Positions 2,275 to 44,174 of a stretch of 45,879 nucleotides of DNA are shown here, piece by piece. The number at the start of each line of letters is the position of its first letter. Position 1 is the stretch's first letter. The translations under genes and the position numbers were made by a program. Origin of the DNA: a virus; IMG/VR virus record IMGVR_UViG_3300042477_000298, positions 1 to 45,879 of that record, one strand, 5' to 3'. The notes under the pieces are model-generated. The model worked only from the letters and a program-made list of their open reading frames with translations, ran no database searches and was not told the origin of the DNA.

Positions 2275-2321
2275 TTGACAGCAATACCTCCCCGAGCTAC
2301 AATGACTCTACATTGTGGCTC
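2275..2321 (+). promoter_or_regulatory. Sigma70-type promoter with terminator-like dyad over the -10
   Basis: -35 TTGACA 2275-2280, 17-nt spacer, -10 TACAAT 2298-2303. Arms 2294-2304 and 2311-2321 pair over 11 bp (one G-U) with a 6-nt loop and are followed by TTTT 2322-2325. The -10 lies inside the 5' arm and the expected start (about 2310) is in the loop. Read-through RNA can therefore form a terminator hairpin that promoter-born RNA cannot. Confidence 0.8.
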
Positions 2322-16539: not shown

Positions 16540-16547
16540 ACTATTTA
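16540..16547 (+). promoter_or_regulatory. ACTATTTA box (candidate late promoter)
   Basis: ATACTATTTATTAG, 38 nt before ATG 16578. It lies in the 56-nt gap between the polymerase gene and a virion-type gene. Confidence 0.6.
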
Positions 16548-16577
16548 TTAGTGAATCTTTTCGAGGAGAACTAATAC

Positions 16578-17393
16578 ATGGCAAGTGGACACAGAAAAAG
16601 AAAAGCAGCCGCATTAAGACTTGATGTTTTAAATCCAGCAGGATTAACAAATGTATCCGAAGCAGATCGTGGAAACACAACTAATCAAAATAATCTCATT
16701 AACATAGCAACTTACTCAAGGGATGGAGTTACCCCTACTTTTACAGCTGGTTCTACTACATTATTAAATAATGTTGTAGCAAATGCAGATGGTGCTTGGA
16801 CAAAAGCAGGATTAACTGGCGAATCAACAAATACTGGGGTTTTCCTCGGAACATCGTTGAGTGGAGCGGTTGGTATAACAGCTACAACTAAACATTATTA
16901 TTTTCCAGCTGTTGGAGGATTACAAACAAACTTATCTGGCGCAAACGGTGTATCGGCTCCAGTTATTGTTTATTCTAATGATGGTCCGCAAGCAGGTTAT
17001 GTTCCTTATTATTTAGGTGGTAGTACTGCAACTAGTTCAATTAAATTCGGTTCTCAAATCACCGGCGCTGGTTCTGCAACTCACGTTATTGTTTATGTTG
17101 GCGGAGAGTTAGAAGCGTCTGATAGAATTAGAATTATGAAGGCGTCTGATGGTTCGTTGTACGGAACAGTGCCATATATGATAGGTACAAACATTACAAC
17201 TGGCTCAACTAGTCCAACGATTGTATCTGGTTCAGAATTAAGCGGTTATTCATATAGAAAAGCCTTTTTCCTTACAAAAGCCTCAATAAATACCGCACAA
17301 GGATTTATACTAGAATTCTCGTCCTCTGCCAGAACATCAACTACACCAGTTGCTGGCGTATTTGTGGCAATCTCTTCTGGCACTTATGCGTAA
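16578..17393 (+). CDS. Virion surface/decoration-like protein
   Basis: 271 residues, very rich in Gly, Ser, Thr and Ala with short beta-forming segments throughout and a basic N terminus (GHRKRKAAALRLDVLN). No cysteine and no enzyme motif. Composition and single-gene late-box context are typical of capsid decoration, neck or fibre proteins. SD CGAGGAG is well placed. The exact structural role cannot be deduced. Confidence 0.65.
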   Translation: MASGHRKRKAAALRLDVLNPAGLTNVSEADRGNTTNQNNLINIATYSRDGVTPTFTAGSTTLLNNVVANADGAWTKAGLTGESTNTGVFLGTSLSGAVGITATTKHYYFPAVGGLQTNLSGANGVSAPVIVYSNDGPQAGYVPYYLGGSTATSSIKFGSQITGAGSATHVIVYVGGELEASDRIRIMKASDGSLYGTVPYMIGTNITTGSTSPTIVSGSELSGYSYRKAFFLTKASINTAQGFILEFSSSARTSTTPVAGVFVAISSGTYA

Positions 17394-17397
17394 TTAG

Positions 17398-17448
17398 TTG
17401 ACAAATTAGTTCTCTTATGATAACCTCCATAGACAACTATGGAGGTTA
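17398..17448 (+). promoter_or_regulatory. Promoter plus 12-bp RBS-sequestering dyad of the dUTPase gene
   Basis: -35 TTGACA 17398-17403; a 17-nt spacer puts the -10 at TAACCT 17421-17426 (TATGAT at 17416 is too close). A perfect 12-bp inverted repeat, 17421-17432 with 17437-17448, has loop ACAA. The 3' arm carries the SD GGAGG. With a start near 17433 the transcript would lack the 5' arm, so only read-through RNA hides the RBS. Confidence 0.8.
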
Positions 17449-17455
17449 TTCATTT

Positions 17456-17914
17456 ATGGACAAGATTTATGTTAAGAAACTAAAACCAGAAGCAATCTTA
17501 CCAACAAGAGCAAACCCTTCTGATGCTGGAGCAGATGTTTATTTTTGCAGTCACGAACCGCTGACGATCGCTCCTGGAGAGTCTGTATTGCTTGGGACTG
17601 GTCTACAAGTCGCAACACCAATTGGTTATGTATGTGAAGTTAAAAACAGGTCTGGTATGGCATACAAGAAAAGTTTGGTTGTTGGTTCGTGCGTAATTGA
17701 CTCTGGATATTCTGGAGAAGTTAAAATCAATCTTCACAATATCGGAAGAGAAGTAAGAACAATTGATCCTTTTGAGAAAATTGCCCAACTTATTTTTTAT
17801 CAAGTCAATCTACCAACATTTGAATGTTTACCAAGCGAAGTAGATCTTTATCTTCATACCCCAACTGTATCCAGTAGAGGTGAATGTGGGTTTGGATCAA
17901 CAGGAAATAAATAA
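17456..17914 (+). CDS. dut: dUTP diphosphatase (trimeric dUTPase)
   Basis: 152 residues from ATG 17456, chosen because GGAGG of the dyad lies 11 nt upstream. Hydrolyses dUTP to dUMP and PPi, keeping uracil out of DNA and feeding ThyX. All five motifs are present: I DAGADVY (23-29), II NRSGMA (64-69), III VIDSGYSGEVKINLHN (80-95, Y85 stacking on uracil), IV KIAQLIF (108-114) and V RGECGFGSTG (141-150). Standard length. TAATG overlap with the next gene. Confidence 0.96.
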   Translation: MDKIYVKKLKPEAILPTRANPSDAGADVYFCSHEPLTIAPGESVLLGTGLQVATPIGYVCEVKNRSGMAYKKSLVVGSCVIDSGYSGEVKINLHNIGREVRTIDPFEKIAQLIFYQVNLPTFECLPSEVDLYLHTPTVSSRGECGFGSTGNK

Positions 17915-26515: not shown

Positions 26516-27017
26516 GTATGCAGAGTGGTCAGTTGATTTAATCAAAGAAGATGTACAAAGAAACACCCTCCCGTATGCGTGTTTAATGTCGCATGTCGAG
26601 GGTGATTTCAATATGTCCACGGCGGTAAGAAATGCTAATGCATTTGGTTGCAAAGAACTATTTTACTTTGGACAAAAGCGATGGGACAAGAGGGGGTCGG
26701 TGGGTACACACCACTACTCCCTCGTATCTCATTTGAAGGATATTGATGCGATTAAAGCATTAAAGTCCAAGTATAAATTTGTTGCGATTGAATGCAACAT
26801 CGAAAGAAATTGTGTTTCTCTCTTTGATTATAAAATTGAACCGAATACCATGTTTATCTTTGGCGAAGAGTCAAAGGGATTGAGCGACGAGATACTCGAT
26901 CTCTGCGAAGATTATGTTTATATCCCAATGATTGGTTCAGTTAGAAGTCTCAATGTTGGTACAGCAAGCGGAATTTTGATGGCAGAAGCGATGAAATCGA
27001 TTTCGCATACTATTTAG
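26493..27017 (+). CDS. SPOUT/TrmH-family RNA 2'-O-methyltransferase
   Basis: 174 residues; start at 26493 (26487 and 26499 also possible in frame). Transfers methyl from SAM to a ribose 2'-OH, usually in tRNA or rRNA. All three SPOUT motifs are visible: MSTAVRNANAFG, FIFGEESKGLS and IPMIGSVRSLNVGTASGILMAEA, the last forming the trefoil-knot SAM site. With eight phage tRNAs and a tmRNA in the window, phage RNA is a plausible substrate. Short N-terminal extension only. Confidence 0.88.
   Translation: MKMNVQSKYAEWSVDLIKEDVQRNTLPYACLMSHVEGDFNMSTAVRNANAFGCKELFYFGQKRWDKRGSVGTHHYSLVSHLKDIDAIKALKSKYKFVAIECNIERNCVSLFDYKIEPNTMFIFGEESKGLSDEILDLCEDYVYIPMIGSVRSLNVGTASGILMAEAMKSISHTI
27009..27016 (+). promoter_or_regulatory. 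ACTATTTA box (candidate late promoter)
   Basis: ATACTATTTAGTAAT overlaps the last codons of the methyltransferase, 29 nt before ATG 27038. Confidence 0.55.
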
Positions 27018-27037
27018 TAATAGCAAGGAGATCGATA

Positions 27038-28111
27038 ATGTATCAAAAGTTATTTGAGAATTGGAGAAACTACAAAAAAGTAATTAAAGAAGACGTAATG
27101 CGTTATTCTGAATATGGTTCCTCGTTTCAAGAAATGAGAGAACTTATCAAAGATGCATCAGATAAGACATGGATATTCTTTGATACAGAAACAACAGGTC
27201 TTTCTGCTGAAAAGGACTTCCACCAAGTTACTCAAATAGCAGCAATCGCTGTCGATGTTAAAAACTTTGATGAAGAACCAGAGATTCTAGAGAAATTTAA
27301 TGTTAAGATCCAGTTGGGAGATAGAACCCGTGGTTTTATGGATTGGGATCGTAGTAAGAAAGCAGAGAAACGAGCCGCCGCCCGTGCTGCTGGGGTAGAG
27401 GTAGCCCCCGGCATTAAGCGTATAAGACAAGAACCAGAGAAGTTCAAAGGCATTTCTGATATTTTCTCTATGACACAATATGGTGTATCAAGAGATCCAG
27501 AAAAGGCAAGAAGAAAAGCGTTCTTACAGGCAAGAGAAATGCCTGGAAAAGAAGATATCTCAATGGAAGATGTACCAGAGTCCGCTACATTTATGAGACT
27601 TGTTCCAGCACTAGAGCAATTCAACGAATTTCTAGATAGATATCCAGATAGAATTCTAGTTGCTCAAAATGCTCCATTCGATAATGGATTCTTAAATAAC
27701 ATGTATCAAAGAATTGGAGAAGTTCCGCCTGATGACATTGTTGTTGACACAGTTATGATTTTCAGAAAGTTCTTAACCCCTGCACTAAAAATGTTTAAGG
27801 CGACCAGAGAAGCAGGAGAAGAACTAAGTCCAGAAGATTCAAAGATTCTCGATGCTCTAACCTCAGATAAGGGTAAACTAACTGTATCCTTAGGAAAGAT
27901 TATTAAGGCATTTGACGTAGAAAACAAGGGCTGGCATGATGCTCTTGCCGATGTGACAATGCTTTTGGATGTTCTAAAAGCAGTTATTAACTTCTTGGAT
28001 GTTCGCACTGACCTATCTTCATTAGAACCAGAGCCAGAACCAAAACCAAGAGAGAAGAAAGTTAGTAGTCAATTAAACTTACCAGAACCAAAACCATCTG
28101 ATATTGGTTAG
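27038..28111 (+). CDS. DnaQ-like 3'-5' exonuclease with capsid-targeting N terminus
   Basis: 357 residues. DEDDh exonuclease motifs: ExoI FFDTETTGL (D49, E51), ExoII AQNAPFDNGFL (D215) and ExoIII HDALADVTML (H300, D305). A ~90-residue basic insertion (95-185) separates ExoI from ExoII. The N terminus YQKLFENWRNYKKVIKED is the Trp-containing targeting helix shared with virion-type proteins here, and an ACTATTTA box precedes the gene. This suggests packaging and injection rather than, or besides, proofreading for DnaE. Pro/Glu-rich C-terminal tail. Confidence 0.85.
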   Translation: MYQKLFENWRNYKKVIKEDVMRYSEYGSSFQEMRELIKDASDKTWIFFDTETTGLSAEKDFHQVTQIAAIAVDVKNFDEEPEILEKFNVKIQLGDRTRGFMDWDRSKKAEKRAAARAAGVEVAPGIKRIRQEPEKFKGISDIFSMTQYGVSRDPEKARRKAFLQAREMPGKEDISMEDVPESATFMRLVPALEQFNEFLDRYPDRILVAQNAPFDNGFLNNMYQRIGEVPPDDIVVDTVMIFRKFLTPALKMFKATREAGEELSPEDSKILDALTSDKGKLTVSLGKIIKAFDVENKGWHDALADVTMLLDVLKAVINFLDVRTDLSSLEPEPEPKPREKKVSSQLNLPEPKPSDIG

Positions 28112-28124
28112 TTTTTAATACGAC

Positions 28125-28183
28125 TTGACAGAAATCTTCCACTCCTGTAGACTGTAGGGACATTGACAGCGGGAGTGGAAGAT
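28125..28183 (+). promoter_or_regulatory. Promoter with 12-bp dyad covering SD and start codon
   Basis: -35 TTGACA 28125-28130, 17-nt spacer, -10 TAGACT 28148-28153. Perfect 12-bp arms 28134-28145 and 28172-28183, extendable inward by about 3 pairs. The 5' arm lies in the spacer and the 3' arm contains SD GGAG and the first two bases of ATG 28182. Promoter-born RNA (start about 28160) lacks the 5' arm. Confidence 0.85.
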
Positions 28184-28499
28184 GAATAATTTTCGTGAGT
28201 TTTTTGAGACAAGAAAACTAGAATTTCACAGAAAAGTTAAGAAAGAAATGCTAGACCAACTAAACGAGTTGAGTGGAAACCTCACCCGATTTGGTTGGCA
28301 GTATGAAGACGGTTATTTTTATTGTAACGCCAAAGAGAAAGATATTCTTTTTATCTTAAAGAGCGACTTCGAACCATACTTATTTGACTCACTTGCAGTT
28401 TTACCAGCGGTGGGGCATCCTATGGAGTATGAAGTGGGTGATGTTCAGCAAGTTGTTGAATCACTACAAGACTTAATTGATCAGGAAGTAGAGGGATAG
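28182..28499 (+). CDS. Hypothetical protein
   Basis: 105 residues. Basic helical N terminus (NNFREFFETRKLEFHRKVKKEM), a small beta segment (WQYEDGYFYCNAKEKDILFIL) and an acidic helical C terminus. No recognised motif. First gene of the zinc-knuckle unit, one base before the next start. Confidence 0.65.
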   Translation: MNNFREFFETRKLEFHRKVKKEMLDQLNELSGNLTRFGWQYEDGYFYCNAKEKDILFILKSDFEPYLFDSLAVLPAVGHPMEYEVGDVQQVVESLQDLIDQEVEG

Positions 28500-30077: not shown

Positions 30078-30106
30078 TTGACAGGATCGTTAAGGTGCGG
30101 TATGAT
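30078..30106 (+). promoter_or_regulatory. Second promoter before moxR
   Basis: -35 TTGACA 30078-30083, 17-nt spacer, -10 TATGAT 30101-30106. The expected start (about 30113) falls inside the 5' arm of the hairpin at 30111. Confidence 0.8.
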
Positions 30107-30110
30107 GTGG

Positions 30111-30138
30111 GTGTCTTGAACGGTTCAAGGCACTTTTT
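30111..30138 (+). terminator. Leader terminator/attenuator before moxR
   Basis: 10-bp stem (30111-30120/30124-30133, one G-U), loop CGG, then TTTTT. It ends RNA from the 29983 promoter. RNA from the 30078 promoter begins within the stem and may escape. Confidence 0.7.
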
Positions 30139-31331: not shown

Positions 31332-32561
31332 ATGTCTTACGATCTCAATATTGATATTGCTCGTCTGCTCAAGGATGAGCCTTTCTTTGCTGCTCTTTCT
31401 CGTCGCATCGAGAAGATTTCCACCAATTCTATTCCTACTGCTGCTGTTGGTCTTAACCGTGAAGCTATGCAGTATGAGTTCCTTTACAATCCAGAGTTCT
31501 TTGAGAAGCTTACCGAAGGTCAGCGTCGTGGTGTAATCGTCCACGAGTTCTATCACTTGGTTTTCCGCCATGTTGCTAATCGTCGTCCTGCTCAGGTTAT
31601 TCGTGAACCAGAGCGATTCTTCAAGTTCTGGAACATCGCTACTGACTTGTCGATCAACTGCTTGATTGGAGCAGAGAACCTGCCCGAGAATTGCTGTATT
31701 CCCGGCGGTAAGTCCTTTGAGAATTTCCCCTCGATGGAGTCTGCTGAGTTCTATTTCCGCAAGATTCTTGAGAAGGTGGAAATGGATCCGAATGGTGGCG
31801 GTGGCGATGGTGTTGACGGTTCTGGTCAGTTTGACGATCACGGCAATTGGGCAGAAGGTTCCGGTGACGGAATGGAAGCCGAGACCGCCAACGAGCGAGT
31901 CAAGGAATACCTGAAGGAAGCAGCCGAAAAGGCTGATGCTAAGGGTTGGGGTTCCATGACCAGCAAGACCCGCGAGGAAATCAAGAAGTTCCTTGAGTCG
32001 TATGTTGACTGGCGTAAGGTTCTGCGTATGTTTATTGGTCGCGCCCAGCGTGCGGACAAGTCCAATACTCGTCGCAAGATTGATAAGCGTACTCACAGTT
32101 ATGCTCAGGGTATTGATGTTGTCTCAATCAATCCAGGTCGTAAGATCAACAAGATTGCCAATATCGCTGTGTCGATTGATCAGTCTGGTTCTGTTGACGA
32201 TGATTTGCTTGGTGCGTTCTATGCCGAGTTGAATAGTCTTTCCAAGTTGGCAACTTTCACTGTGATTCCGTTTGACGATCAGGTTTTCGAGCAGAAGGTC
32301 TATGTCTGGAAGAAGGGCGATAAGCGTCAGCGTGAGCGAGTTCTTCACGGTGGTACGAACTTCAGTGCTCCGACCAAGTATGTGAATGAGCGTAACTTTG
32401 ACGGACACATCATTCTAACCGATATGTGTGCAGAGAAGCCTGTTGCCTCCAAGAAGCAGAGAATGTGGATGACCTCCGCTCGTCACGCAAAGCGTCCTTA
32501 CTTCGATCCTCGTCCGAATGAGATGATGATTGTTATTGAAGAGCGACAGAAGCAAAAGTAG
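31332..32561 (+). CDS. DUF2201-type protein: metallopeptidase-like domain plus VWA-like domain
   Basis: 409 residues from ATG 31332. The N-terminal part has a zinc-peptidase-like site, IVHEFYHLVFRH (H71, E72, H75, H80). A Gly/Asp-rich linker spans about 155-185. The C-terminal part has a VWA-like MIDAS, AVSIDQSGSVDD, followed by GGTNFSAP and HIILTDM. This is the classical partner type of MoxR ATPases, so the pair is likely a remodelling machine. Role in infection unknown. It shares the CGT/GGT-rich codon style of moxR. Confidence 0.82.
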   Translation: MSYDLNIDIARLLKDEPFFAALSRRIEKISTNSIPTAAVGLNREAMQYEFLYNPEFFEKLTEGQRRGVIVHEFYHLVFRHVANRRPAQVIREPERFFKFWNIATDLSINCLIGAENLPENCCIPGGKSFENFPSMESAEFYFRKILEKVEMDPNGGGGDGVDGSGQFDDHGNWAEGSGDGMEAETANERVKEYLKEAAEKADAKGWGSMTSKTREEIKKFLESYVDWRKVLRMFIGRAQRADKSNTRRKIDKRTHSYAQGIDVVSINPGRKINKIANIAVSIDQSGSVDDDLLGAFYAELNSLSKLATFTVIPFDDQVFEQKVYVWKKGDKRQRERVLHGGTNFSAPTKYVNERNFDGHIILTDMCAEKPVASKKQRMWMTSARHAKRPYFDPRPNEMMIVIEERQKQK

Positions 32562-38225: not shown

Positions 38226-38303
38226 GCGCCTGTGGCACGACTGGTTAATGGCATTCGTCTTATAAGGGATGGTATGTTGGTTCAAATCCAACCGGGCGCA
38301 CCA
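38226..38303 (+). tRNA. tRNA-Ile (TAT), irregular anticodon stem
   Basis: Acceptor GCGCCTG/CGGGCGC, T arm GTTGG-TTCAAAT-CCAAC and encoded CCA are canonical. The anticodon loop CTTATAA gives TAT, reading AUA without lysidine modification. The assigned anticodon stem TTCGT/GGGAT has two mismatches, so it may be partly degenerate or fold differently. Confidence 0.75.
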
Positions 38304-41663: not shown

Positions 41664-41976
41664 ATCCAGAAGTAGCCGAAAGATTGGTTAAAATCACTTT
41701 GAATGATTGGATTGAATAGGATCCTGACCGTTAGGTAGGTTAAAGAAGGCTCAACCAGTGAGATTAGTTTTTAACAACATCAATATATGGTCCCTGTAAC
41801 AAAATAACTCTTAACCGCAATCCTGGATAACCAACAAACACTGGAAGTAGAAAGCTTGCATTAGTTTAAAGTGGTAAATTCCCGGATTGCCGGGCGATGT
41901 AGGTTCAAATCCTACATGTTAAAAAGATTCAGGGTATCATGGAACTTGATAATTCCGAAATCCCAGTGTTTGTTCC
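41664..41976 (+). ncRNA. Two-domain unassigned structured RNA with tRNA-like segment
   Basis: No ORF. Domain 1 starts at the base after the tRNA-Thr CCA: ATCCAG/CTGGAT (41664-41669/41823-41828), GGATTG/CAATCC (41709-41714/41818-41823, sharing one base) and GGTTAAAGA/TCTTAACC (41738-41746/41809-41816). Domain 2 is closed by a perfect 12-bp stem (41833-41844/41963-41974). It holds a T-arm ATGTAGG-TTCAAAT-CCTACAT (41897-41917), a GTTT...GTGGTAAAT D-like arm and a tight CCCGG-ATTG-CCGGG hairpin (41881-41894) in place of an anticodon arm. TTTTTAACA/TGTTAAAAA (41768-41776/41917-41925) could form a pseudoknot. Confidence 0.5.
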
Positions 41977-41986
41977 CTTCTGTTAT

Positions 41987-41994
41987 ACTATTTA
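41987..41994 (+). promoter_or_regulatory. ACTATTTA box (candidate late promoter)
   Basis: TTATACTATTTATTATATAA, 32 nt before ATG 42019. It lies just after the structured RNA. Confidence 0.6.
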
Positions 41995-42018
41995 TTATAT
42001 AATGGGAGGGATCTATGA

Positions 42019-42492
42019 ATGTTAAACCTATTAGCACAAGTTGACTTAGCAAATCATGTTTCTAGCGCCGTATCAAACGGCGAAATCGACATAAACCAAT
42101 TGGCGCACCTAAGTGGAGGCAATCCTATGATGATTGTTGCACTAGGTGCTATTGCCGTTTTGGGCGGTAAAAAAGTTTGGGATTGGCTCAAACAACGACA
42201 AGAACAACAACACGAACAAAAGATGGCTGAAATTGAAGCATCAAAGGTTTCTGTTGGAACGGGACACGAACAATGTGTCGCCAAACAACAAGAACTAGAA
42301 TCACAAGTTTCAGGGTTAAAAGGAAAAATCTCTGATATTGAATCAAAAGCAACAACGGCAGAAAAGAAAGCAGAAGAAATCAAAGTCTCCAATCAAGAAA
42401 CACTTGAATCAATTGAAGATGCCGTAAAGAAAGTAAAGAAGAAAGTTAAAAAACTTGAGGAGCAGGTAGAATCAACCAAGAAGGGGAAATAA
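42019..42492 (+). CDS. Membrane-anchored coiled-coil protein
   Basis: 157 residues. One membrane segment GNPMMIVALGAIAVLGG (about 34-50), then WDWLKQRQEQQHEQKMAE and a long Lys/Glu coiled coil (about 60-155). A second ATG at 42015 gives only 9 codons. SD GGGAGGG 8 nt upstream and a late box suggest a virion or lysis-stage protein; the topology would also suit a spanin-like or tail-associated membrane protein. Function unknown. Confidence 0.7.
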   Translation: MLNLLAQVDLANHVSSAVSNGEIDINQLAHLSGGNPMMIVALGAIAVLGGKKVWDWLKQRQEQQHEQKMAEIEASKVSVGTGHEQCVAKQQELESQVSGLKGKISDIESKATTAEKKAEEIKVSNQETLESIEDAVKKVKKKVKKLEEQVESTKKGK

Positions 42493-42495
42493 GAA

Positions 42496-43260
42496 TTGGA
42501 TGAAACTCTCTTGCCAAAAGAAGCAACCTCTGCTACACTTACCAAAGATAAACAAGGAACCGCTTGTGTTGTCAAATCTGGTGAGAAAGTTGAGATATTA
42601 TCATCGGGCAAATACAGAATGCCTGATGGTTCAATCATAAGCGACATATCGGATTGCGATTTACAAAGTGGATCTCAGTTGGTTTATAGAGAAGAAGAAC
42701 CAAAGGAGGAAAAATTGATCGCTATTAAAAGAGAGAAACCAAAACCAAAGATTCATAAAACTGAAACTGCTGTCGTATTACCCACCGACACCACACCACC
42801 CATACACGACCCCACCATACCTACAATACCTGTGGTGGAATCTACCCTTATTCCTCCAACAACAGGTAGAGATATAAACCCAGTTAACTCTGGTGTAATT
42901 GATCCAATCGTTGCTGGAGCAATCGCAACCGCTGCTATTGCCTCTGTTGTTTCTTCCGTAGCATCTTCATCGACAAAAGCAAGAAGAGCAAAGAAAATGG
43001 AAAATTCACAAAGATCGCAAGACTCACAGAAGCGGGAGCAGAAGGAAAAGGAAGAGCAGACCAAATGCAATTCCAAATCTGATGGTGTTAAGTCCTCAAT
43101 CGCTATGACAGAAGAGATTGTAAATACCAGTCCAGCAAATAGAATTGAGATCAAGGAAGATAGAGAGTTTAATAAGAGAGTTAAAGTTCTTAATGCTGAG
43201 ATTATGAAACTTAATAAAGATATTAGATCAATAGAAGAAAGTCTTTCAAAGAAGAAATGA
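42496..43260 (+). CDS. Proline-rich membrane protein (TTG start)
   Basis: 254 residues if started at TTG 42496, with SD AAGGGGAA about 8 nt upstream; no in-frame ATG is near. Residues 1-75 are a beta-rich domain (ACVVKSGEKVEILSSGKYRM). Residues 85-130 are Pro/Thr-rich. A hydrophobic Ala/Val/Ile segment (VDPI-like start, AGAIATAAIASVVSSVAS) lies at about 138-156, followed by a charged coiled-coil tail. Forms a late pair with the previous gene; both have a membrane segment plus coiled coil. Confidence 0.65.
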   Translation: MDETLLPKEATSATLTKDKQGTACVVKSGEKVEILSSGKYRMPDGSIISDISDCDLQSGSQLVYREEEPKEEKLIAIKREKPKPKIHKTETAVVLPTDTTPPIHDPTIPTIPVVESTLIPPTTGRDINPVNSGVIDPIVAGAIATAAIASVVSSVASSSTKARRAKKMENSQRSQDSQKREQKEKEEQTKCNSKSDGVKSSIAMTEEIVNTSPANRIEIKEDREFNKRVKVLNAEIMKLNKDIRSIEESLSKKK

Positions 43261-43289
43261 AAACAAACTAAAGAAGATTATTCGCCCAC

Positions 43290-43342
43290 TTGACACAAAA
43301 ACCCTCCTCTGCTATAGTTAGGTATATAGAGAGGAGGGTTTT
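43290..43342 (+). promoter_or_regulatory. Promoter with 13-bp RBS-sequestering dyad
   Basis: -35 TTGACA 43290-43295, 17-nt spacer, -10 TATAGT 43313-43318. Perfect 13-bp arms 43298-43310 and 43330-43342. The 5' arm is in the spacer; the 3' arm holds SD AGGAGG just before ATG 43346. Expected start about 43325 leaves only the 3' arm in promoter-born RNA. Confidence 0.88.
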
Positions 43343-43345
43343 GCT

Positions 43346-43549
43346 ATGCTTGTCGTATGTAAAAAGTGTAAAGTCGAACACGATTCGAGAGACATTAACT
43401 CCAACGGATTTTGTGTTTGGTGTGAACAGAGAGAATCTGTTGAGATGGTTAGGTTTCAGCAGGATCAAAAGTATTTCTATAACTACTTTCATAAACAATT
43501 TGACTGGAAATCTCTGCCTTGCTATGCTAAGGGTATGAGAACGAGGTAG
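43346..43549 (+). CDS. Small zinc-ribbon protein
   Basis: 67 residues from ATG 43346. VVCKKCKVEHDSRDINSNGFCVWCEQRE: CxxC...CxxC (C5, C8, C27, C30). Basic/aromatic C terminus. An alternative overlapping frame from 43290 starts inside the promoter and is rejected. Unknown function. Confidence 0.7.
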   Translation: MLVVCKKCKVEHDSRDINSNGFCVWCEQRESVEMVRFQQDQKYFYNYFHKQFDWKSLPCYAKGMRTR

Positions 43550-43815: not shown

Positions 43816-44174
43816 GGGTCTGAAATGGTATCGATCGGGTAGAGTTTTATGATTATGCAGGACGATGGGGAGCGAGGCATCGTAAAAACGCTTAAATGTT
43901 TAATTGCCAACGACAACGTTGCTTTTGATTACGCCGTAGCGGCTTAAATCACGGAGTCTCCAAACACTCTGTAAAATAAGTTTGGATAGGTTGGAATCTT
44001 ATCGAAAACAAGATTCATCGGCTTTTCTAACTGGTTTTGCCCTGAATAAATCAGTATGAAGTCCCTGTAACCCAGGTGTTTTGTCAAGGGTAGGTTGGGT
44101 GCTTGACTATTCCTGTGAATGAGTAATCATAAAAACTATGTGAGACGCGGGTTCGACTCCCGCCAGATCCACCA
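43816..44174 (+). ncRNA. ssrA: Transfer-messenger RNA (tmRNA)
   Basis: About 359 nt. The tRNA-like ends pair as GGGTCTG (43816-43822) with CAGATCC (44164-44170), including a G3-U70 alanine identity pair. T arm CGGG-TTCGACT-CCCG and encoded CCA (44172-44174) follow. The tag frame is GCC at 43906 through TAA 43945-43947 and encodes ANDNVAFDYAVAA. The start ANDN and hydrophobic Ala-Ala end are typical degradation tags, although AVAA replaces the usual ALAA. The body between tag and T arm has room for pseudoknots. Rescues stalled ribosomes and tags products for ClpXP-type proteases. Confidence 0.95.

What the first reader, a model, noticed from the sequence alone, without database searches (positions are those of the whole stretch)
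17398..17458. dUTPase RBS locked in a perfect 12-bp hairpin whose 5' arm is the -10 box
The 5' arm contains the hexamer at the 17-nt position and the 3' arm contains GGAGG. One DNA segment thus encodes promoter, anti-SD and SD.
Basis: partly seen in the sequence, partly recalled or inferred. Interest (0 to 1): 0.7.

Follow-up and report, generated by a model that had tools for sequence, protein, structure and literature searches.

The report
Promoter-straddling hairpin silencing phage read-through RNA
In a group of uncultivated bacteriophages, the promoter of the dUTPase gene and of several other genes sits astride an RNA hairpin that can form only in messages running in from the gene before, so such messages should be cut short or left untranslated while messages started at the promoter work normally; the trick is known from phage T4, but here it recurs at many genes.

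Summary
Window 17398-17458 holds TTGACA-N17-TAACCT and a perfect 13-bp (not 12) hairpin, 17420-17432/17437-17449. Its 5' arm contains the -10 hexamer and its 3' arm contains GGAGG ahead of the dut ATG. In five relatives the same promoter and a hairpin across the start site are kept. Base pairs change on both sides in four of them, and the fifth (L056) has an unrelated 13-bp hairpin in the same position. The design recurs: in 132 intergenic promoters of the group, all 17 perfect stems of 9 bp or more straddle the predicted start site. None lies wholly inside the local transcript. In the window, all four such hairpins directly follow a unit headed by a second, late-like motif (ACTATTTA). Folding gives a 12-22 kcal/mol cost to open the SD in read-through RNA, against 2-4 in promoter-initiated RNA. 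At dut all six versions also have a U-rich tail (5-8 of 8), so termination is likely as well. Best reading: a read-through silencer that the local transcript escapes. It is a new variant of a known kind (T4 gene e and I-TevI; B. subtilis sigG). No RNA data exist.

The parts
17398..17403 (+). -35 box TTGACA of the dut promoter
   Evidence: sequence; invariant in 6 relatives
17418..17426 (+). extended -10, TG-A-TAACCT (17 nt from the -35); the hexamer doubles as part of the anti-SD arm
   Evidence: TGATAACCT, TGTTAACCT or TGATAGACT in relatives
17420..17432 (+). 5' arm ATAACCTCCATAG (anti-SD), upstream of the predicted start site
   Evidence: outermost pair A-U in three relatives and U-A in two
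17433..17436 (+). loop ACAA; predicted transcription start about 17432-17434
   Evidence: inference: 6-8 nt after the -10 hexamer; not measured
17437..17449 (+). 3' arm CTATGGAGGTTAT with the SD GGAGG at 17441-17445
17450..17457 (+). U-rich tail TCATTTAT (5/8; 5-8/8 in relatives), terminator-like, runs into the start codon
17456..17914 (+). dut, dUTPase, 152 aa
   Evidence: PF00692 6.5e-20; phrog_135 4.2e-44
16578..17393 (+). upstream 271-aa gene of unknown function, conserved in synteny; stop codon 26 nt before the hairpin
   Evidence: no PHROG or Pfam hit
16540..16547 (+). ACTATTTA motif (ATACTATTTATTA), putative late-type promoter of the upstream gene
2275..2321 (+). sister element, terminator flavour: TTGACA-N17-TACAAT, arms GAGCTACAATG (2294-2304) and CATTGTGGCTC (2311-2321), then TTTTCATT; SD free
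   Evidence: relative has GGGCTACAA/TTGTAGCCC
28125..28184 (+). sister element, SD/start lock: arms ATCTTCCACTCC (28134-28145) and GGAGTGGAAGAT (28172-28183), ATG 28182-28184
   Evidence: relative has TAACCTCTCCTGT/ACAGGAGAGGTTA
43290..43348 (+). sister element, SD lock: arms AAAACCCTCCTCT (43298-43310) and AGAGGAGGGTTTT (43330-43342), ATG 43346-43348
   Evidence: relative has TCCTCCTCTGCTATA/TATAGCAGAGGAGGA

Best explanation
The segment is a composite insulator: an early-type, sigma70-like promoter for dut wrapped around a hairpin whose 5' arm lies upstream of its own start site. RNA polymerase arriving from the upstream 271-aa gene transcribes both arms; the hairpin forms, probably terminates part of this RNA at the U-rich tail, and hides the dut Shine-Dalgarno sequence in whatever reads on. 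RNA begun at the dut promoter starts in the loop, so it can neither terminate there nor hide its SD, and dut is translated. In effect dut is expressed only from its own promoter. The same device, sometimes terminator-like and sometimes an SD or start-codon lock, separates several other units of this phage group. Shown by sequence: arms, promoter, SD, conservation, covariation, recurrence, position across the predicted start site. Inferred: start site, termination, translation block, timing.
For: Promoter and straddling hairpin kept at dut in six versions down to 55% protein identity. Covariation at dut: 4 of 13 pairs with two-sided changes, score 0.254 against 0.079 in shuffles (1/500) and at most 0.085 when slid. 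L056 has an unrelated 13-bp hairpin in the same place, its 3' arm on the ATG, followed by T8. Pooled over 132 intergenic promoters: stems of 9 bp or more, 16 observed against 0.64 expected by swapping; of 11 bp or more, 10 against 0.03; intragenic pattern matches show no excess. All 17 perfect stems of 9 bp or more in the -35 to +60 region straddle the start site (null 44%, p about 1e-6). SD opening cost for the dut family and the two SD-lock families is 12-22 kcal/mol in read-through RNA and 1.6-3.8 in local RNA, except L056 (5.6 against 2.3), where the start codon is covered instead. U-rich tail at dut in 6/6. In the window all four elements follow ACTATTTA-headed units: 4/6 against 0/16.
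Against: No transcript, start site or termination data. The -10 hexamer matches consensus at only 3/6. Orthologues are not independent, so pooled p-values overstate; about seven gene families carry such stems. The tail in the window itself is only 5/8 T and the simple terminator scan did not list this site. Several promoters preceded by the ACTATTTA motif have no hairpin. The late status of that motif is inferred from position and neighbours only.
Confidence: 0.72

Rival explanations
1. Pure intrinsic terminator of the upstream gene that happens to overlap the next promoter and RBS because intergenic space is short; no translational role.
For: U-rich tail in all six dut versions; T7-T8 in G003 and L056; sister elements 2275, G003 59526 and G003 57022 are terminator-like with a free SD.
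Against: The 28182 and 43346 families keep complementarity to the SD or start region with different arm sequences, and five of their six members have at most 4/8 T after the stem. At dut the SD or the start codon is covered in 6/6.
Confidence: 0.3
2. Palindromic DNA operator for a repressor of the dut promoter.
For: A 13-bp palindrome with a 4-bp spacer over the -10 looks operator-like; one unrelated phage group found by pattern has a 14-bp palindrome over a promoter with no ATG nearby.
Against: Arm sequences differ between elements of one genome; spacer length varies from 4 to 13 nt at dut and to about 26 nt elsewhere; G003 keeps a G-U pair; L056 replaces the palindrome wholly.
Confidence: 0.05
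3. RNase processing site or 3'-end stabiliser: read-through RNA is cut at or protected by the hairpin to mature upstream and downstream messages.
For: The hairpin forms only in read-through RNA, between two genes.
Against: A 13-bp stem is short for RNase III; the arms target the SD or start codon specifically; the U-rich tail is explained better by termination.
Confidence: 0.08
4. Chance or side effect: a -10 region ending in CCTCC next to GGAGG.
For: The swap control shows that pyrimidine-rich promoters and SDs can pair by chance up to about 8 bp.
Against: Stem-length excess, straddle bias, covariation and replacement.
Confidence: 0.02

Closest known systems
T4 gene e, soc, 49 and I-TevI inhibitory hairpins (PMC3014915, PMC2988022)
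   Same: SD or start codon is hidden in long upstream-initiated RNA; a promoter in the 5' strand of the structure yields RNA without that strand, which is translated.
   Different: In T4 early RNA is silenced and T4 late promoters lie in the arm. Here the promoter is TTGACA/TANNNT, the gene is dut, the upstream unit looks late, a U-rich tail follows, and the phages are not shown to be related to T4.
Bacillus subtilis sigG read-through hairpin (PMC5942855)
   Same: A large hairpin is proposed to block translation of read-through RNA from PspoIIG and cannot form in RNA from PsigG.
   Different: Single cellular gene, sporulation sigma promoter, no reported terminator-like variant.
PeSLs, composite promoter-terminator motifs of T4-like phages (Comeau et al. 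2014, known here only through its citation in PMC4503421; the paper is not held)
   Same: Early promoter combined with a stem-loop between phage genes, many per genome.
   Different: Described as mobile cassettes that mediate gene shuffling; overlap of the 5' arm with the promoter and SD sequestration could not be checked here. Elements here differ in sequence from each other.
ESAS of cluster K mycobacteriophages (PMC3203893)
   Same: Inverted repeats near translation starts at several genes.
   Different: ESAS repeats share a 17-bp consensus and sit upstream of a conserved 13-bp SAS; here arm sequences are gene-specific and include the SD.

Membership tests
T4 gene e-type read-through lock | SD and/or start codon paired in upstream-initiated RNA | tested here: met
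T4 gene e-type read-through lock | promoter located so that its RNA lacks the 5' strand | tested here: met
   by predicted start site only
T4 gene e-type read-through lock | local promoter is of a later class than the read-through RNA | tested here: inconclusive
   local promoter is sigma70-like and the upstream motif is late-like, i.e. apparently the reverse; timing not measured
T4 gene e-type read-through lock | translation of the long RNA is strongly reduced | not testable with these tools
   needs reporter or infection data
intrinsic terminator | G+C-containing hairpin directly followed by a U tract | tested here: inconclusive
   5/8 T in the window, 7/8 in G003, 8/8 in L056; not listed by the scan
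PeSL cassette | early promoter plus stem-loop terminator as a repeated mobile cassette | not tested
   definition not available in the library; arm sequences differ between loci
ESAS | 17-bp consensus inverted repeat next to GGGATAGGAGCCC | tested here: not met
   no such consensus in the elements compared

The most novel reading that the evidence does not exclude
The phage group uses a genome-wide set of hairpins that straddle start sites, re-invented with new sequences at the same genes, to keep early (sigma70-type) genes from being expressed out of late read-through RNA: the reverse of the T4 lysozyme logic, with termination and SD locking as interchangeable outputs of one geometry.
Probability: 0.4. 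Interest if true: 0.65.

Novelty: new variant of a known kind. Interest (0 to 1): 0.5.

Why it matters
It shows that a regulatory trick proven for a few T4 genes can be a recurrent, fast-evolving layout in another phage group, with promoter, terminator and ribosome-binding site written in one 50-base stretch. It gives a simple annotation rule (complementarity across a predicted start site) for spotting true transcription starts and unit boundaries in uncultivated phages, and a compact read-through insulator design.

Tried and rejected
Close cultured phages: none; the PolIII alpha subunit is about 29% identical to Streptomyces phages, so no annotated record covers the region. My first reading that L004/L056 lacks a hairpin was wrong: it has a different 13-bp hairpin whose 3' arm is the start codon. 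A looser hairpin definition with G-U pairs weakened the link to the ACTATTTA motif (Fisher p = 0.006), as against 7e-6 with strict stems of 9 bp or more. Decoy promoters with an 11-13 nt spacer also showed some stems (5/62 of 9 bp or more), so I moved to swap and intragenic controls. Structure prediction of the upstream 271-aa protein was low confidence (mean pLDDT 52) and was not used. No sigma70 region-2 protein reached the family cut-off in the relatives, so the factor for ACTATTTA is unknown. The original PeSL papers are not in the library. The pattern search found L106/L108, an unrelated phage with the same layout before an excisionase-like gene; it matched nothing in the phage or E. coli collections.

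Full report
WHAT IS THERE. The window is a 45,879-base virus record, searched as such, with DNA-metabolism genes on the + strand: ribonucleotide reductase, PolIII alpha, dUTPase and an exonuclease. Between a 271-aa gene (16578-17393) and dut (17456-17914) lie TTGACA (17398-17403), a 17-nt spacer, an extended -10 TG-A-TAACCT (17418-17426), a perfect 13-bp stem (17420-17432/17437-17449, loop ACAA), GGAGG inside the 3' arm (17441-17445), a U-rich stretch and ATG 17456. The stem is far outside chance.

CONSERVATION AT DUT. Six distinct versions were compared: the window, G003 (L003/L053), G005 (L054), G006 (L057), G007 (L058) and L056 (L004). All keep TTGACA-N17-TG-N-TANNNT. Five keep an anti-SD arm over the -10 and the SD in the 3' arm, with inner-stem sequences that differ but still largely pair, and an outermost pair that is A-U in three and U-A in two. 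Counting gives 4 of 13 pairs with two-sided changes, and controls are far lower. The sixth, L056, has a different 13-bp hairpin: its 5' arm CCTTATCTAACAT lies in the promoter spacer, its 3' arm ATGTTAGATAAGG is the start of dut itself, and eight T follow. The geometry is thus kept while the sequence is replaced.

RECURRENCE. The group has many TTGACA-type promoters, almost all in the direction of the genes. The same geometry is found at other genes. At 28125 the window has ATCTTCCACTCC/GGAGTGGAAGAT and G003 has TAACCTCTCCTGT/ACAGGAGAGGTTA before the orthologous gene; at 43290 and 2275 orthologues in G003 or G005 likewise keep or change both arms, while some orthologues in G005, G006 and G007 lack the element. 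Over 132 intergenic promoters of five genome records and L056, 16 stems of 9 bp or more straddle the start site against 0.64 expected from swapped partners, and 10 of 11 bp or more against 0.03; 75 intragenic matches of the same promoter pattern show no excess. A search that did not presuppose straddling found 17 stems of 9 bp or more in the -35 to +60 stretch, and all 17 straddle the predicted start; shuffled sequences give 44%. Orthologues are not independent; I count about seven gene families that carry strict stems, and seven of seven at 44% is about 0.003.

TWO OUTPUTS. Folding read-through RNA and promoter-initiated RNA separately shows two classes. In the dut, 28182 and 43346 families the SD costs 12-22 kcal/mol to open in read-through RNA and about 2-4 in local RNA (L056: 5.6 and 2.3, with the start codon in the stem instead). 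In the 2340 and 57080 families the SD is equally free in both; in the 59590 family the difference is small. These last three are terminator-like, with 6 or 7 of 8 T after the stem in five of six cases. The dut family shows both traits: the U-rich tail has 5, 7, 8, 5, 6 and 6 T of 8 in the six versions, against a background mean of 2.3.

CONTEXT. A second motif, ACTATTTA(TTA), is strand-biased and lies shortly upstream of SD and start codons. In G003 the segment with terminase and portal has copies of this motif but no intergenic TTGACA promoter. I call it late-like; this is not proven, since copies also occur in the DNA-metabolism half and no sigma factor was recognised. In the window each of the four straddling hairpins directly follows a unit headed by this motif: 2039 to 2275, 16540 to 17398, 27009 to 28125, 41987 to 43290. 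Counts are 4/6 against 0/16 for promoters that follow another TTGACA promoter, and 13/37 against 2/74 pooled with strict stems. This fits the idea that the hairpins stop late read-through RNA from feeding the next, early-type unit.

MECHANISM. Read-through RNA contains both arms and folds; it is partly terminated and otherwise has its SD or start codon covered. RNA started at the local promoter begins in the loop or later, lacks the 5' arm, and is translated. Shown: sequence, conservation, covariation, recurrence, folding energies. Inferred: start sites, termination, translation block, timing.

KNOWN RELATIVES. T4 genes e, soc, 49 and I-TevI are silenced in long RNA by the same geometry, with late promoters in the DNA of the 5' strand for e and I-TevI (PMC3014915, PMC2988022). 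In B. subtilis a large hairpin is proposed to block sigG translation from read-through RNA and cannot form in RNA from PsigG (PMC5942855). PeSLs of T4-like phages combine early promoters and terminators; I know them here only by citation. The present case is therefore a new variant of a known kind: different promoter class, apparently reversed timing, mixed terminator and SD-lock outputs, many genes, and replacement of arms at the same gene.

Noticed in passing
window 2039, 8099, 16540, 19081, 27009, 41987; many in G003: ACTATTTA(TTA) motif, strand-biased, 5-28 nt (mostly 8-15) upstream of an SD: a likely second promoter class of this phage group, factor unknown.
   Followed up: partly
L056:4579-4650: dut hairpin replaced by a 13-bp stem whose 3' arm is the first 13 bases of the coding sequence, followed by T8 inside the gene: a terminator-like site made of codons.
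   Followed up: partly
window 32574; G003 96092; G005 46965: Promoter whose -35 box itself pairs downstream (TGACACTC/GGGTGTCA, TTGACTCC/GGAGTCAA, GACGCCTAA/TTAGGTGTC) with a free SD and no U tract; purpose unclear.
   Followed up: partly
G006 101385-101733 (my reversed orientation), G005 66761-67198, G002 31458-31883: Tandem TTGACA promoters about 115-120 nt apart, each followed by a similar short segment (GGGGCAGTCAGCAGAAC..AAGCGGTTCTGCAA in G006): look like arrays of small RNA genes with their own promoters.
   Followed up: no
window 30078-30135; G003 93584; G005 44443; G006 75039: Conserved short hairpin CTTGAACGGTTCAAG-like directly after a strong promoter: possible small RNA.
   Followed up: no
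L106:2993-3045, L108:2051-2103: Unrelated phage contigs with TTGACA-N17-TAACCT overlapping an anti-SD arm, AGGAGG and ATG before a 59-aa excisionase-like gene next to an integrase-like gene: independent case of the same layout.
   Followed up: partly
window 38226-38303 and 41855-41923: Odd tRNA-like genes: one with an apparent 4-base anticodon (ataa), one seen only by Rfam.
   Followed up: no
window 43816-44174: Complete phage tmRNA gene with tag ANDNVAFDYAVAA.
   Followed up: no
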